Positions 2,059 through 9,194 of a stretch of DNA of 64,000 nucleotides are shown in pieces. Position numbers and translations under genes: made by a program. Numbering within the stretch: position 1 is the first letter of the stretch; each line of letters opens with the position of its first letter. The stretch spans positions 124,001 to 188,000 of the forward strand of contig CAMLFH010000007.1 of the NCBI GenBank assembly GCA_946479285.1, given 5' to 3'. Origin of the DNA: an uncultured Flavobacteriales bacterium (GTDB taxonomy: Bacteria > Bacteroidota > Bacteroidia > Flavobacteriales > Crocinitomicaceae). The notes beneath the pieces were generated by a model. That model did not search any database and was not told the DNA's origin. It saw only the letters and a list, made by a program, of their open reading frames with translations.

Positions 2059-2889
2059 ATGGAAAAGAAAAGAATTCTCTTTGTTTCTCAGGAAATATAT
2101 CCATTTCTTGCAAAAACAGAAATTTCTCACAATGCTCGTAAGCTTCCGCAAGGAACACAGGAGAATGGTAAAGAAATCCGCGTTTTCACGCCTCGCTTCG
2201 GCAGTATTAATGAAAGAAGACATCAACTTCATGAAGTAATACGCCTTTCGGGAATGAATATCATTATCGATGACAATGATCATCCGTTGATCATTAAAGT
2301 TGCATCCATTCCGGCTGCACGTTTACAGGTTTATTTCATCGATAACGATGAATTCTTTAAACGTAAAACCAATGTAACTGATGATAAAGGAGCTGATTTC
2401 TCCGACAATGACGAAAGAAGCATGTTCTTCTGTCGCGGTGTTTTGGAAACAGTGAAGAAATTAGGATGGAAACCCGACGTGATTCACTGTCACGGCTGGA
2501 TGACTTCATTGATGTCTTTATACATTAAGAAAATCTACAACAAAGATCCGCATTTCGCTGATACGAAAGTAGTTTACAGTATTTACGACGATAAAGAAGG
2601 ATTCGAATCTCCCTGGGATGAGCGCTTCCACGAGAAGTTGAAATTCGACGGATTTGATGATGAAGTCACAAATTTAGTTAAAACGCCTACTTTGGACGCA
2701 ATAACCAAAGCGGCAGTTACGTTCTCTGACGGAGTTGTTCAAGGAAGTGAAGTAATTCAACCCGAATTACAGAAAGTTTACGATGAAGCAACGTGTTTGA
2801 AACTAAATTATTTACCGGAAGAACACTTAACCAAAGGATTATCAGAGTTCTTTGATAAAGTAATAGAAGAAGGCATTTTGATACAATGA
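2059..2889 (+). CDS. Glycogen/starch-synthase-like protein, N-terminal (GT5) domain only
   Basis: The 276-residue protein resembles the N-terminal Rossmann domain of glycogen synthase GlgA. It begins with the strand RILFVSQEIYPF and has DVIHCHGWMTSL near residue 140, the segment that in GlgA binds the acceptor. The usual KTGGLADV loop is changed to KTEISHNARK, removing the glycine pair that contacts ADP-glucose, and the C-terminal Rossmann half (about 200 residues) is absent. An intact frame and a normal Bacteroidota context opposite panC argue for a retained, repurposed protein rather than decay. Its stop overlaps the next start by four bases (ATGA). Catalytic glycogen synthesis by this protein alone seems unlikely. 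Confidence 0.8.
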   Translation: MEKKRILFVSQEIYPFLAKTEISHNARKLPQGTQENGKEIRVFTPRFGSINERRHQLHEVIRLSGMNIIIDDNDHPLIIKVASIPAARLQVYFIDNDEFFKRKTNVTDDKGADFSDNDERSMFFCRGVLETVKKLGWKPDVIHCHGWMTSLMSLYIKKIYNKDPHFADTKVVYSIYDDKEGFESPWDERFHEKLKFDGFDDEVTNLVKTPTLDAITKAAVTFSDGVVQGSEVIQPELQKVYDEATCLKLNYLPEEHLTKGLSEFFDKVIEEGILIQ

Positions 2890-4265
2890 TGAATCTAAAA
2901 AAACTACATAATAACTGGCGGAAAGGTATTTTACTTTCCGCTTGTTTTGTCTTAACACTTTCCATTTTACCAGGTTGCAAGAAAACATCCTCCAAATTTG
3001 GTACAGAAGCATTAAGCGTTGACGACTTATTGGCTGCAGGAGGAAAGGATACATTTCAACTGAACACGTCATCGGTTCTTTTTGATACTCTGGATACTGA
3101 CAATCAGATTTTTGCAACTTTAGGCGCTTATCACGATCCCAAGTTTGGAATTGTAAACACTTCTATTTATACCCAGTTTTCAATCATTGGAGCAGCAACG
3201 ATGGGAGCAAATCCTACAGTTGACTCTGTGGTTCTAAGCCTGAATTACGGTGGCTTTTATGGCAAAGAAGAAAAACCACTCGGTAAATTAGATCCGCAAA
3301 CTTTTGAAGTTTATGAACTTGCAGATGCCTTAGACAAGGATACTGATTATAAAAGAAACACAATAAAAGCAACAACGGGTCCCAATTTAGTTGAGCCGGG
3401 ATCTGCTACACAAAGGCCAAACATTAAAGATGAGGTGTTTGTTGGAACCGGAGCTGATACTTTAAGGTTACGTCCACAACTTCGATTAAGGCTGAATAAC
3501 ACATTCGGTCAACAATTCCTGAATGACATGTCTGCTTCAAGCGGAACCGGAAACTTTGCAAGCAGCGAGGCTTTCCTTAGCTCCGGTTACTTTAAAGGTC
3601 TGAAAATAAATGTTGCTGACGGATCGCCTTCAGCTGGTCAGGGAGCTATTCTATATTGCAGATTGGAAAATGCACAAACCAAAATAACCATTTATTACAA
3701 AGTTGGAGCTGAATCTCTTCCGCGCAATGTTGCCTTAGTAGTGAATAGTTCCTGTGCTGATTTTAACCATGTTGACATCAACAATTCAGGGTATCACATC
3801 GGTGACGTTCTTGCAAATCCTTTAAACGGACAAACCCAATTTTACAGCCAGGCAAACAATGCCATTCCTTGCATTAAACTTCCTTCAGTCAATGATCTTT
3901 CAAGCAAATCAGTGATCAACAATGCATTGCTTTATTTGCCAATCGCGTATCAAACCGGAAACTTTTATTACCCTACACAAACATTTTATGTAGCATACCG
4001 TGATGAAGACGGAGACTTTGTTCTTATCGGATATAATAATGCTATTCTAACGGGTACCTATGATAACAATCAAAAAGGATATGTCATTGATTTAAGGCAT
4101 TATATTCAGGATTTGGTAAGTGGAAAAAAACCAAACACGGGAATTTATTTACTCCCGCAATTGAACTATTTTAACTGTACTGCAGACCGTGTTGTTTTCA
4201 ATGGCCCGGCATCTTCTTACAAATCAAAACCTAAATTGGTAATTAAATACACTGAATTCAAATAG
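2886..4265 (+). CDS. DUF4270 family lipoprotein
   Basis: The 459-residue protein has a long N-terminal signal with lipobox ILPGC, giving lipidated Cys31, so it is probably an envelope lipoprotein. The body is beta-rich with phrases such as VDSVVLSLNYGG near the start and PKLVIKYT at the extreme C-terminus, which fit the DUF4270 family of Bacteroidota. The function of that family is not established. It overlaps the upstream gene by four bases (ATGA) and lies two bases before glmS, so the three genes are very likely co-transcribed. Linkage with glmS is frequent in Bacteroidota and may point to an envelope-related role (inference). Confidence 0.82.
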   Translation: MMNLKKLHNNWRKGILLSACFVLTLSILPGCKKTSSKFGTEALSVDDLLAAGGKDTFQLNTSSVLFDTLDTDNQIFATLGAYHDPKFGIVNTSIYTQFSIIGAATMGANPTVDSVVLSLNYGGFYGKEEKPLGKLDPQTFEVYELADALDKDTDYKRNTIKATTGPNLVEPGSATQRPNIKDEVFVGTGADTLRLRPQLRLRLNNTFGQQFLNDMSASSGTGNFASSEAFLSSGYFKGLKINVADGSPSAGQGAILYCRLENAQTKITIYYKVGAESLPRNVALVVNSSCADFNHVDINNSGYHIGDVLANPLNGQTQFYSQANNAIPCIKLPSVNDLSSKSVINNALLYLPIAYQTGNFYYPTQTFYVAYRDEDGDFVLIGYNNAILTGTYDNNQKGYVIDLRHYIQDLVSGKKPNTGIYLLPQLNYFNCTADRVVFNGPASSYKSKPKLVIKYTEFK

Positions 4266-6197: not shown

Positions 6198-6896
6198 TTA
6201 CCGGGAAATCACATTCCCTTTCAACATGATTTCCTCCTTATAAAGCGTGATTTTCATATTTTTTATTGATTCTTGCTCATTGAAATAGACGGTATGAGAA
6301 ATCAAACCCGGACCACTGATCATCAATGAAACAGGTTCCTTACTTTTACTCCAATCCAACGGAATTTTGAATTTTCCATCTTTGTCAGGACTCGCTGTAG
6401 CGATCACATTTCCCGAAACATTCATCAATTGAATAGTTACAAGGTCGTATGCCTTTCCATCTATCAGGATAGTCCCGCTTGTAAATTTTTCATCCGTATG
6501 GTCGTAAAACTCAATCACACTTACCATTCCGTCCAAAGGTTCCTGGTAAATTATCTGAGCCGTATCAATCGGCGCGACCTGGGCATTCAGGTGAACAGCG
6601 GAAAAAGTGGTCAAAGCCAAACCCAATGCAACGGCTTTCAGATCAAAAGAAAACGACCGATGAGGTATCGAAAGGGAATAATTCTTCTCCATCTGCTCCG
6701 GCCGGAATCTTCCACAAACAGATTCCTCCTTCTTTCCGCTCATGTAGTCTACAATAGAGAAATCCGACATGGAACTAAAATCCACCACCGTTTTGCTGCA
6801 CGCTTCACAAAAGCGGCCTTTTGCTTCCGGTTTCATCTTCGCCCAATCTTCGTGACAAGGATCATCAATGCTATATTTAACTGTTTTTGCTTTCAT
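6198..6896 (-). CDS. Four-cysteine N-terminal module / one-TM / beta-domain protein, array copy 4
   Basis: A 232-residue protein of a family I recognise only as a Bacteroidota N-terminal motif. C14, C30, C33 and C61 lie in PCHEDW, GRFCEACSK and VCGRF and look like a metal-binding knuckle. The stretch VVDFSSMSDFSIVDY lies between the third and fourth cysteine. A single hydrophobic segment at about 83-104 ends in NAQ. After it comes an extracytoplasmic beta-rich region (about 130-232) with SGTILIDGK and DKDGKFKIPLDW, like carboxypeptidase-regulatory domains. It is last of four tandem paralogues and starts 11 bases after the preceding gene. The function is unknown; the layout (cytosolic Cys module, membrane segment, outside domain) recalls transmembrane signalling proteins, which is inference. 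Confidence 0.78.
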   Translation of the reverse strand: MKAKTVKYSIDDPCHEDWAKMKPEAKGRFCEACSKTVVDFSSMSDFSIVDYMSGKKEESVCGRFRPEQMEKNYSLSIPHRSFSFDLKAVALGLALTTFSAVHLNAQVAPIDTAQIIYQEPLDGMVSVIEFYDHTDEKFTSGTILIDGKAYDLVTIQLMNVSGNVIATASPDKDGKFKIPLDWSKSKEPVSLMISGPGLISHTVYFNEQESIKNMKITLYKEEIMLKGNVISR

Positions 6897-6907
6897 GACT
6901 GCAGCTA

Positions 6908-7609
6908 TTAATTATCAACCAGCTTTACTTTCCCCATTTTCATCGGGCGCTCGTGTAAAGTAACTTTCAGGTTTCCCAAAGACTGGTGATTCTCGAAATA
7001 GATGATTTGAGAGGAATATCCGGATGCACTAACCCGGATAGAAGCCGGACTGTTCGTCCAATCCAAAGGAATCTTAAACGTTCCATCCTTAGAAACTTCG
7101 ATCGCAGATAATTCAACGGAACTTCCATCCACCAAAGCAACTTTGATTTCACTGACTCTTTTCCCGTTCAACTTCACTTTTCCGCTTACAAATTTTTCAT
7201 TGCTGTGATCGTAAGACATCGCAACCTCGCCCTGGACCATCACTTTCGGTTCATTGATCGAATCATGCTGTTCAATTTGTACTGAATTTTGTGCTAGAGA
7301 AGGTAACGCAGAAAATGTACTCAATGCAAGCCCCAAAGCAACTGCTCTCAAATCGAATTGAAAAGAAGACGGATTTGATTTTGGTAAAAAATAGGTTTTT
7401 GCCAATTGATCTTCTCCAAAGCGGCCACAAACCGATTGGTGCTTGTTATTTTCCAAATAATTCACAATGGAGAAATCAGACATCGCGCTGAAATCCACAA
7501 CCGTTTTACTACATGAACTGCAGAAACGGCCCTGTGCTTCCGGATTCATCCGGTCCCAGTCTGCATGACAAGGATCTTCGATTTTATAGTTTATTTTCTT
7601 CGGTTTCAT
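6908..7609 (-). CDS. Four-cysteine N-terminal module / one-TM / beta-domain protein, array copy 3
   Basis: This 233-residue paralogue of the 6198 gene keeps every landmark: PCHADW, GRFCSSCSK, VVDFSAMSDFSIVNYL and VCGRF, then a hydrophobic segment at about residues 85-106 ending in LAQ. The outer part repeats the pattern SGKVKLNGK, DGTFKIPLDW and a tail with MKMGKVKL. The middle region just after the membrane segment is the least conserved part. It starts 54 bases after the stop of copy 2 and is probably in the same transcript. Conserved cysteines and a variable outside region suggest a shared inner partner and different outside ligands, but this is inference. Confidence 0.78.
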   Translation of the reverse strand: MKPKKINYKIEDPCHADWDRMNPEAQGRFCSSCSKTVVDFSAMSDFSIVNYLENNKHQSVCGRFGEDQLAKTYFLPKSNPSSFQFDLRAVALGLALSTFSALPSLAQNSVQIEQHDSINEPKVMVQGEVAMSYDHSNEKFVSGKVKLNGKRVSEIKVALVDGSSVELSAIEVSKDGTFKIPLDWTNSPASIRVSASGYSSQIIYFENHQSLGNLKVTLHERPMKMGKVKLVDN

Positions 7610-7663
7610 GGCTGCGTTTTTTTAGATTACATTCAGTTCGGGAATTGGTTCAATGGCTAGATG

Positions 7664-8449
7664 TTATTCTTCCGTTTTTTTGATGCTGACATTTCCAATC
7701 TCGATCTTTTGAAGGATCTGGTCCTCTTCAACCTTCACATCTCCCTGGATAACCTCTATTTGCCCACGGATCATGATCTCCTCTTCGAGCAATTCAATTT
7801 TTAAACCGGAAAGAGAAGCCTGGTATGGAAAATAAATTCCTTTCGTTTGATAACCTTCTCCTGAAACTTCAATAGATTCAGGATGCAGATCCCAATTCAG
7901 GTCAAATACAAAATTCCCTTCTGAATCAGGATGAATCCTCTTCAGTTCTCCGCCATCAGCATCCATCAATAAAACAGTTATCTGTTCAAAATTATCCCCC
8001 GAAATGAGGATCTTACCACTTGCCTTTTTCTCCTTTTCGTGATTGGAATTCACATGAGCAACCGTTCCAACGACCATTGGATTAACTCTAATCAAGGTGT
8101 CAATTTTCGCCGGATCTCGTGACTCGGTTTGCGAAAAACTATGAACAGCGCAAAAGGTAGTCAAAGCCAAACCGAGAACAACCGCACGTAAATCAAACGT
8201 TGGTGCAAAAACCGGTTGATTTAAGTTGTAAACACGATCCAGCTGCGGCTTTGTAAATCGTCCGCAAACTTTTTCCTGTTTGTGATTTTCCAGGTAAGAA
8301 ACTATTGAGAAATCCGACATGACAGTAAAATCTACCACTGATTTCTCACACGATCCGCAGAAACGGCCGTTCGTTTCAGGCGTCATATCGTTCCAACTCT
8401 TATCACACGGATTTTGGATCGAATATTGAATTTTTTTTGCTTTCATCAC
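7664..8449 (-). CDS. Four-cysteine N-terminal module / one-TM / beta-domain protein, array copy 2
   Basis: At 261 residues this is the longest paralogue of the array. The N-terminus carries PCDKSW, GRFCGSCEKSVVDF, MSDFSIVSYLENH and VCGRF, followed by FDLRAVVLGLALTTF as membrane segment ending in SFSQ. The outer beta region has SGKILISGD and EGNFVFDLNW. An extra tail of about 25 residues with repeated short acidic and hydrophobic blocks follows the EEIMIRGQIEV segment that ends the other copies. It is closest to copy 1 by eye, sharing PCDKSWNDM and the hydrophobic core almost exactly, so those two probably arose by the latest duplication. Two start codons (MM) are adjacent; I used the first. 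Confidence 0.78.
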   Translation of the reverse strand: MMKAKKIQYSIQNPCDKSWNDMTPETNGRFCGSCEKSVVDFTVMSDFSIVSYLENHKQEKVCGRFTKPQLDRVYNLNQPVFAPTFDLRAVVLGLALTTFCAVHSFSQTESRDPAKIDTLIRVNPMVVGTVAHVNSNHEKEKKASGKILISGDNFEQITVLLMDADGGELKRIHPDSEGNFVFDLNWDLHPESIEVSGEGYQTKGIYFPYQASLSGLKIELLEEEIMIRGQIEVIQGDVKVEEDQILQKIEIGNVSIKKTEE

Positions 8450-8471
8450 TTCCAGTTTAATTCAGTTGTCC

Positions 8472-9194
8472 TTATAATCTATCCGGATTCGGAGTCAGCC
8501 GAATTACTCGTCCGATCATCATTCCTGCTTCTTCCATTTCAATCTGAATATCAGAAAGAGTATTCATAGATTCAAAGTAACGTGTCTCCGTATTGTATTC
8601 AGAACCCGAAACCTCAATTGAAGCAGGATTCTTTTTCCAATCCAGGACAAATTCAAAATTACCGTTCGAATCTGGCTTAACCGTCTGTAAGACTCTGCCT
8701 TTTGTATTTTTCAGCTGAATTGAGATCCCTTCAAATGAATCGGACTGAATCCGGATCTTTCCTTTGGCAACTTTTTCTTTAGAATGATCGATTGGCCTGT
8801 AAGCAATTGTCCCGACAATAACCGGATGGATCAGAACAGTGGTATCAACAGCCTCAGGATTTTTAGGTATTTCCGTTTGAGAAAAACTATGAACCGCCGA
8901 AAAAGTAGTCAACGCCAATCCCAAAACAACTGCTCTCAAATCAAATACAGGAGCAAAAACCGGTTGATTCAATTTGTAAACATGATCCAACTGGGGTTTG
9001 GAGAATCTTCCACACACTTTTTCGTTTTTATGGTTTTCCAGGTAATTCACAATGGTAAAATCCGGCATCCCGGTAAAATCAATGACCGAATGGTCACAAG
9101 ACCCGCAGAAACGGCCATTTGTCTCCGGCTGCATGTCATTCCAGCTCTTATCACAAGGATTTGGAATGGAATATTGGATGGATTTCGACTTCAT
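8472..9194 (-). CDS. Four-cysteine N-terminal module / one-TM / beta-domain protein, array copy 1 (promoter-proximal)
   Basis: This is the first gene of the minus-strand array (240 residues). It has PCDKSWNDM, GRFCGSCDHSVIDF, MPDFTIVNYLENH and VCGRF, so the four cysteines are kept although MSD has become MPD. The membrane segment is RAVVLGLALTTFSAVHSFSQ. The outside part contains KGKIRIQSD, NGNFEFVLDW and the tail MMIGRVIRL. It starts with ATG at 9192-9194; the promoter of the four-gene unit should lie in 9195-9320, but I find no clear box there. As for the other copies, the family is recognisable but no function can be given. Confidence 0.78.
   Translation of the reverse strand: MKSKSIQYSIPNPCDKSWNDMQPETNGRFCGSCDHSVIDFTGMPDFTIVNYLENHKNEKVCGRFSKPQLDHVYKLNQPVFAPVFDLRAVVLGLALTTFSAVHSFSQTEIPKNPEAVDTTVLIHPVIVGTIAYRPIDHSKEKVAKGKIRIQSDSFEGISIQLKNTKGRVLQTVKPDSNGNFEFVLDWKKNPASIEVSGSEYNTETRYFESMNTLSDIQIEMEEAGMMIGRVIRLTPNPDRL

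What the first reader, a model, noticed from the sequence alone, without database searches (positions are those of the whole stretch)
6198..9194. Tandem array of four Cys4-module / one-TM / outside-beta-domain paralogues
Four adjacent minus-strand genes share PCxxxW-MxPExxGRFCxxC, VVDFxxMSDFSIV and VCGRF, then one hydrophobic segment and a variable extracytoplasmic beta domain. The four cysteines are invariant while the outside region diverges most. This looks like a small expanded receptor-like family with one inner readout and several outer specificities, of a type I cannot match to a described system.
Basis: partly seen in the sequence, partly recalled or inferred. Interest (0 to 1): 0.7.

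Follow-up and report, generated by a model that had tools for sequence, protein, structure and literature searches.

The report
Cysteine domain ahead of export signals
Four neighbouring genes in a water bacterium each make an envelope protein that is probably cut off and exported, leaving behind inside the cell a small, unusually conserved four-cysteine domain that we found in no family database, so they are probably not receptors but an unusual way of putting a folded domain in front of an export signal.

Summary
Four tandem minus-strand paralogues (window 6198-9194, Fluviicola-like, Bacteroidota) share a 76-residue Cys4 module, one hydrophobic segment and a diverging outer domain. No Pfam or NCBIfam family matched the module above its cut-off. 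It occurs in at least 54 of 395 sampled Bacteroidota genomes, and 221 of 223 distinct members keep all four cysteines. The receptor reading is doubtful: the hydrophobic segment looks like a cleavable export signal, ending in a Bacteroidetes Q-rule signal-peptidase-I site in all four copies and many relatives, and in a lipoprotein box in others (strict patterns 88 of 146, shuffles about 18; hold-out 51 of 77, shuffles about 10). Some relatives carry a type IX secretion tail, and one array paralogue lacks the module and starts at an ordinary signal peptide. The outer domain is the known carboxypeptidase-regulatory (transthyretin-like) fold, as in SusC N-terminal extensions; other members carry TonB C-terminal or plug domains. 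Best reading: exported TonB/T9SS-associated envelope proteins with a probably metal-binding cytosolic domain before a cleavable signal, which gates export or stays behind as a separate fragment. Cleavage, metal binding and the module's partner are untested, and over a third of members miss the strict cleavage patterns.

The parts
8472..9194 (-). first paralogue in reading order (240 aa)
   Evidence: ORF; module HMM hit
8967..9194 (-). Cys4 module of the first paralogue, residues 1-76 (C14, C30, C33, C61)
   Evidence: AF2 pLDDT 90-94 (10-residue means) over residues 1-70 in the full model
8880..8966 (-). linker + signal-peptide-like segment ending SFS|Q (residues 77-105; Q106 is +1)
8472..8879 (-). 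predicted exported half: low-confidence linker + transthyretin-like carboxypeptidase-regulatory domain
   Evidence: AF2 pLDDT 90-98 from residue 131 on, last block 85; Foldseek 5aq0 and others; sub-cut-off PF13620
7664..8449 (-). second paralogue (260 aa from ATG at 8446); module 8219-8446, linker+signal 8132-8218 (SFS|Q106), exported half 7664-8131
6908..7609 (-). third paralogue (233 aa); module 7382-7609, linker+signal 7292-7381 (SLA|Q107), exported half 6908-7291
6198..6896 (-). fourth paralogue (232 aa); module 6669-6896, linker+signal 6582-6668 (LNA|Q106), exported half 6198-6581

Best explanation
Each gene encodes a two-part precursor. The N-terminal ~76 residues fold in the cytosol into a small Cys4 (probably zinc-binding) domain. 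An internal, cleavable signal peptide (type I with the Bacteroidetes Q-rule here; lipoprotein type II in other members) then sends the C-terminal half across the inner membrane, where signal peptidase cuts it off. The exported half is a SusC-NTE-like transthyretin domain (in relatives also a TonB C-terminal domain, a TonB-receptor plug or a T9SS-sorted protein), so the cargo belongs to the TonB/T9SS envelope machinery. Most likely the Cys4 domain is a pre-signal export-control domain: it binds one conserved cytosolic or membrane partner and sets when or how the precursor is handed to Sec, as the much shorter extended signal peptide region does for autotransporters. Seen in sequence: module, internal hydrophobic segment, cleavage-site patterns, cargo families. 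Inferred: metal, actual cleavage, role and partner of the module.
For: Export signal: permissive patterns classed 146 nonredundant members as 85 Q, 44 lipobox, 11 AxA, 6 none. Strict patterns gave 88 of 146 (53 Q, 35 lipobox) against a shuffle mean of 18.1 (max 32), and 51 of 77 against 10.2 (max 21) in a hold-out from later searches. Twelve neighbouring proteins with a predicted single TM gave 1 of 12. The stretch before the hydrophobic core is more positive than the one after in 157 of 223, less in 30. T9SS sorting tails match in 28-30 of 146 (some below Pfam's cut-off), and a T9SS substrate must leave the inner membrane. Natural test: L057:7382-8011 has no module, starts with an ordinary Q-rule signal peptide, and is 76% identical over 206 residues to a partial-module protein in L031. 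Cargo: CarboxypepD_reg 67, CarbopepD_reg_2 66, TonB_C 19, Plug 2 of 146 at E<=0.01 (both plugs above cut-off); Foldseek hit 5aq0, the structure reported as closest to the SusC NTE (PMC7782687, passages). Module: four Cys in 221 of 223, Asp 221, Gln 220; dN 2.6 times lower than cargo.
Against: 58 of 146 in the first set and 26 of 77 in the hold-out miss the strict cleavage patterns; members are related, so the shuffles are not fully independent trials. L067 and L069 look like plain transmembrane anchors. Three members with a sorting-tail match (L034, L049, L050; only L050 above cut-off) have poor or no sites. In Fluviicola the hydrophobic segment is almost as conserved as the module, unusual for a throw-away signal peptide (recalled) and compatible with a retained anchor. 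No cleavage, pyroglutamate or metal data were found. The L057 paralogue suggests that cargo export does not need the module. The export-control role rests on analogy.
Confidence: 0.5

Rival explanations
1. Export-coupled messenger. Signal peptidase cuts off the cargo; the remaining Cys4 domain plus hydrophobic stub is then cut by a site-2 protease (RseP-type), which frees the Cys4 domain into the cytosol in proportion to export flux, where it regulates a target.
For: The remnant (about 105 aa, one hydrophobic helix, tiny outer part) has the shape of an RseP substrate: RseP removes remnant signal peptides and cleaves small membrane proteins of about 50-100 aa (PMC10470546, abstract and passages). 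The module is the most conserved part. In 12 of 72 sources a sigma-70-type gene lies near the array on the opposite strand, in 11 of them with a membrane protein carrying CarbopepD_reg_2+TonB_C.
Against: No target known. The sigma-factor neighbourhood was seen only in loci that are by title mostly Chitinophagaceae; Fluviicola and Rufibacter/Hymenobacter loci have other neighbours. Cleavage of the remnant was not tested.
Confidence: 0.2
2. Uncleaved inner-membrane (or dual-membrane) receptor or anti-sigma-like transducer: the Cys4 domain signals to the cytosol while the outer domain senses the periplasm or outer membrane.
For: The hydrophobic segment is well conserved in Fluviicola; a few members lack cleavage sites; Dma anti-sigma factors of Bacteroidota have a comparable layout (PMC13088901, passages); sigma-type genes near 12 arrays.
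Against: Q-rule and lipobox enrichment, T9SS tails, and a module-less paralogue with a plain signal peptide. Among neighbour clusters shared by three or more loci, the sigma-type genes are all on the opposite strand (rarer neighbours were not annotated).
Confidence: 0.15
3. Two proteins in one gene: the precursor is split on export and the Cys4 fragment persists as a membrane-tethered cytosolic protein with its own structural role (for example on TonB/ExbB or Sec), not as an export controller or messenger.
For: The module is conserved whatever the cargo type and signal type.
Against: No positive evidence for a lasting fragment. Whether stand-alone module genes exist was not settled: short open frames with a module match (for example 77-97 aa) were not examined.
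Confidence: 0.12

Closest known systems
Extended signal peptide region (ESPR) of SPATE autotransporters
   Same: A conserved N-terminal extension precedes a conventional cleavable signal peptide (PMC3153244, passages)
   Different: The ESPR is about 25 residues and belongs to autotransporters of Enterobacteriaceae; here about 76 residues, predicted folded, four near-invariant cysteines, Bacteroidota, Q-rule or lipobox signals
SusC/RagA N-terminal extension (PF13715) + TonB box
   Same: Exported half has the same carboxypeptidase-D-regulatory/transthyretin fold (PMC7782687 passages); a TonB-box-like [ED][VI]x[VI] follows in some members (19 of 108 tails, 5.4 shuffled, max 13)
   Different: No beta-barrel; preceded by Cys4 module and internal signal; box-like motif in a minority
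[quoted passage not shown]
   Same: N-terminal cytosolic domain, one hydrophobic segment, envelope C-terminal part (PMC13088901, passages)
   Different: Dma has a transmembrane helix, a long disordered tether and a C-terminal beta-barrel, and Dma2 is in an operon with its sigma factor; here cleavage patterns, a short linker, no barrel found, and no sigma gene beside the window array
Zinc-binding anti-sigma (ZAS, zf-HC2) domains
   Same: Small cytosolic Cys domain before a single membrane segment (recalled)
   Different: No zf-HC2 match for the four window proteins at E<=1; spacing C-x15-C-x2-C-x27-C; sigma-type genes near only 12 of 72 arrays and on the opposite strand

Membership tests
Bacteroidetes Q-rule signal-peptidase-I substrates | Gln directly after a small-x-small cleavage site at the end of a hydrophobic segment | tested here: met
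   all four window copies (SFS/SFS/SLA/LNA then Q); 53 of 146 strict, 14.4 shuffled, max 25
Bacteroidetes Q-rule signal-peptidase-I substrates | pyroglutamate on the mature N terminus | not testable with these tools
   needs N-terminal proteomics
Carboxypeptidase-regulatory / transthyretin-like domain (PF13620, PF13715) | profile match and fold | tested here: met
   for the family: 66-67 of 146 at E<=0.01, best 4.1e-20, two shown above cut-off. The window copies are below Pfam's cut-off; their model matches TTL structures such as 5aq0, TM 0.67 on the target, E 0.016
T9SS type A cargo | C-terminal sorting domain (TIGR04183/PF18962) | tested here: inconclusive
   30 (TIGR04183) and 28 (PF18962) of 146 relatives; none for the four window proteins at E<=1
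ESPR | short (about 25 aa) conserved extension on autotransporter signal peptides | tested here: not met
   76-residue predicted-folded Cys4 domain; no autotransporter domain among the 25 families found
Dma anti-sigma factors | C-terminal beta-barrel and operon sigma factor | tested here: not met
   window proteins: outer half modelled as one TTL domain, no barrel family; the neighbours scanned are glycosyltransferase 5, DUF4270, SIS/GATase, S9 peptidase and MMPL proteins
ZAS/zf-HC2 anti-sigma | zf-HC2 profile match | tested here: not met
   no zf-HC2 in the complete lists for the four window proteins at E<=1; also not among the 25 of 29 families shown for 56 modules
Zinc-binding domain (any) | bound metal on four cysteines | not testable with these tools
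   221 of 223 keep all four Cys; no coordinates or metal data

The most novel reading that the evidence does not exclude
A Bacteroidota signalling device in which ordinary protein export generates the signal: signal peptidase (I or II) acts as site-1 protease, the Cys4 domain on the remnant signal peptide is then released by an intramembrane protease, and the free metal-binding domain reports the export flux of TonB/T9SS-associated envelope proteins to the cytosol.
Probability: 0.18. Interest if true: 0.85.

Novelty: new variant of a known kind. Interest (0 to 1): 0.6.

Why it matters
The module is a widespread domain family of Bacteroidota (27 of the 54 positive genomes have two or more matches) without a matching Pfam or NCBIfam model here. 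A predicted-folded, four-cysteine cytosolic domain in front of a cleavable signal peptide, of both signal-peptidase I and II types, is an unusual topology and raises a direct question: what does a cell do with a conserved domain that is cut off its cargo at every export event? Its cargo (SusC-NTE-like, TonB C-terminal, plug, T9SS-sorted) also gives a handle on the SusC NTE, reported as of unknown function (PMC7782687, passages).

Tried and rejected
Receptor with variable outer specificities: weakened by cleavage patterns, average purifying selection on the outer part and counterparts of three copies across species.

Anti-sigma factor with cognate sigma: tested by clustering 521 neighbour ORFs from 72 of 73 sources. 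A sigma-70-type gene is near the array in 12, always on the opposite strand (two confirmed with Pfam; ten by BLAST cluster). These loci are by title mostly Chitinophagaceae (partly recalled). Only clusters shared by three or more loci were looked at.

A TonB box on every exported half: only 19 of 108 tails. An hMGxV motif is enriched (23 strict matches in 21 of 146, 1.4 shuffled; 108 loose matches in 76 of 146, 36 shuffled) but its meaning is unknown.

T9SS co-occurrence: SprA_N in 303 of 395 genomes. By my reading of the two lists all 54 module genomes are among them, so 249 of the other 341. Suggestive, but confounded by phylogeny.

My permissive cleavage classifier misassigned some rows (for example window copy 7664-8449 as lipobox, L034 and L042 as Q), hence the strict counts. 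The strict counts used slightly different stretches (24 residues, 26). Dropped before counting: proteins under 110 aa, those whose module match starts past model position 12 (14 in the hold-out), and near-duplicates; 196 hits became 151 unique and 146 nonredundant. The 221 of 223 for cysteines is after these drops. Genome counts are lower bounds: at most 14 candidates per genome were scored. The family counts include the positive centre genome.

Literature for this module: searches (keywords only, an open-licence library) listed no paper that I recognised as describing it.
Full report
OBSERVATION. Four minus-strand ORFs at 8472-9194, 7664-8449, 6908-7609 and 6198-6896 form a tight array. They are homologous along their length (38-48% identity to the copy at 6198) and share the motifs as described, with one copy deviating in the second motif. 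C14, C30, C33 and C61 and W18, M21, G27, D39, G62 and Q68 are identical in the four. Where the hits of the first protein search give an organism, it is Fluviicola (most hits give none). The array and its neighbours (SIS/GATase glmS-like, DUF4270 lipoprotein, S9 peptidase, MMPL transporter: Pfam on the window genes) keep their order in L001-L006, so the window is a Fluviicola-like genome.

INNER VERSUS OUTER. Among 19 Fluviicola-type proteins, mean identity over 171 pairs is 0.67 for the module, 0.67 for linker plus hydrophobic segment and 0.40 for the outer part. Median dN over 39 of the 40 closest pairs is 0.106, 0.129 and 0.28. The outer part diverges 2.6 times faster but is still constrained on average. 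The copies at 6198, 6908 and 7664 are closer to counterparts in L001-L005 (full-length identity up to 0.75, 0.77 and 0.72) than to each other, and L002 and L005 keep the same order, so the array is old. The copy at 8472 is nearest to 7664 within the window (80% in the module, 44% outside) but has closer full-length relatives elsewhere (78%).

DISTRIBUTION. A genome scan with a profile of 18 relatives gave 72 loci. By title all but one are Bacteroidota (taxonomy of the genera partly recalled); the exception, CP034120 (Glaciecola amylolytica), carries the Fluviicola gene order and may be a mislabelled record. With a profile of 56 diverse modules, at least 54 of 395 evenly drawn Bacteroidota genomes have the module, 36 of 60 in the family of F. 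chungangensis, 25 of 41 in the family of Hymenobacter rubripertinctus and 14 of 40 in the family of Niastella vici, with up to 8 matches per genome. All four cysteines are present in 221 of 223 distinct members after truncated ones were dropped; Asp (221) and Gln (220) are as constant. Phyla other than Bacteroidota were covered only by the scan and the protein searches.

THE HYDROPHOBIC SEGMENT IS PROBABLY A CLEAVABLE SIGNAL. In the window copies it ends SFS|Q, SFS|Q, SLA|Q and LNA|Q. In Bacteroidetes, signal peptidase I cleavage exposes a glutamine in most substrates, which is cyclised (the Q-rule; PMC5837995, abstract and passages). Other members end in a lipoprotein box instead. Strict patterns for either type are found in 88 of 146 nonredundant members against a shuffle mean of 18.1 and maximum of 32, and in 51 of 77 hold-out members from later searches against 10.2, maximum 21. 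Twelve neighbouring proteins with a predicted single TM gave 1 of 12. A paralogue inside an array (L057:7382-8011) has no module and begins with the signal peptide; its counterpart in L031 keeps about half a module and is 76% identical over 206 residues. Against this: 58 of 146 and 26 of 77 miss the strict patterns, L067 and L069 look like plain anchors, some members with a T9SS-tail match have poor sites (L034, L049, L050), and the segment is unusually conserved in Fluviicola.

CARGO. Of 146 members at E<=0.01, 67 match CarboxypepD_reg, 66 CarbopepD_reg_2, 28 the T9SS sorting domain, 19 TonB_C and 2 Plug (not all above Pfam's own cut-offs); 56 match the SusC/RagA model and 30 TIGR04183. Individually checked: Plug above cut-off in L118 and L124, TonB_C above cut-off in L105, L109 and L119 but below in L113, T9SS tail above cut-off in L008 and L050, below in L011, L034 and L049, none in L026. 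The AlphaFold model of the 8472 copy has module pLDDT 90-94 over residues 1-70, a poor linker, and 90-98 from residue 131 except the last block. Foldseek gives one hit below E 0.001 (4v4c_B) and many beta-sandwich or transthyretin-like entries at E 0.0025-0.09, among them carboxypeptidase N 2nsm and carboxypeptidase D 5aq0. PMC7782687 (passages) reports 5aq0 as closest to the SusC N-terminal extension, which precedes the TonB box and has no known function. A TonB-box-like motif follows the domain in only 19 of 108 tails (5.4 by shuffling, max 13).

MODULE. No Pfam or NCBIfam family matches above cut-off (weak Maf-like hits), no convincing PDB sequence relative, and no useful fold match for a moderate-quality module-only model. 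Predicted elements are short strands around the CxxC, one helix, then a strand and a short helix after the fourth Cys. Metal binding is inferred from near-absolute conservation of four cysteines.

NEIGHBOURS. No universal partner was seen in 72 sources. Fluviicola loci sit by an S9 peptidase and glmS-like gene; six Rufibacter/Hymenobacter loci sit by a permease-like gene (one checked: AA_permease_2); 12 loci, by title mostly Chitinophagaceae, have a sigma-70-type gene on the opposite strand, in 11 of them with a membrane protein whose representatives carry CarbopepD_reg_2 and TonB_C.

MECHANISM. I commit to exported TonB/T9SS-associated envelope proteins preceded by a cytosol-retained Cys4 domain and separated by signal peptidase, the domain acting in export control. 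The precedent in kind is the autotransporter ESPR, whose removal changed targeting or timing for EspP and Pet, and for EspP outer-membrane transport, but not the outer-membrane transport of Hbp (PMC3153244, passages). The boldest alternative not excluded is an export-coupled messenger released by a site-2 protease, since RseP removes remnant signal peptides and cleaves small membrane proteins of this shape (PMC10470546, abstract and passages).

AFTER CHECKING. Mended against the calls: sigma plus membrane protein in 11 loci, not 12; the module-less ORF starts at 7382; the 8472 copy has closer relatives elsewhere; stand-alone modules were not examined; copy numbers; per-member domain calls.

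Noticed in passing
L006 (CP034120.1): Record titled Glaciecola amylolytica carries the Fluviicola-type array and gene order; the title may be wrong.
   Followed up: partly
L008:4568-6708, L020:5525-7871: Sigma-70-type gene next to a membrane protein with an unannotated N-terminus, predicted TM, CarbopepD_reg_2 and weak TonB_C, on the opposite strand from the arrays; such pairs in 11 loci; a candidate TonB-linked sigma/anti-sigma pair.
   Followed up: partly
exported halves, e.g. L022, L024, L067: Recurrent short motif hMGxV, sometimes repeated, in otherwise low-complexity exported regions, enriched over shuffles.
   Followed up: partly
L118:1507-2211, L124:1507-2094: Cys4 module plus signal followed by a TonB-receptor plug domain (Pfam Plug above cut-off) in proteins too short for a barrel.
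   Followed up: partly
L105, L109, L119: TonB C-terminal domains (above cut-off) behind a lipobox-type signal rather than an ordinary TM anchor.
   Followed up: partly
L031:9849-10295, L057:9718-10161: Small proteins with an ordinary signal peptide and no other anchor at the end of the arrays; the L031 one matches TonB_C strongly, the L057 one clustered with it.
   Followed up: no
window 2886-4265: DUF4270 lipoprotein beside the glmS-like gene, conserved next to the array in L001-L006.
   Followed up: no
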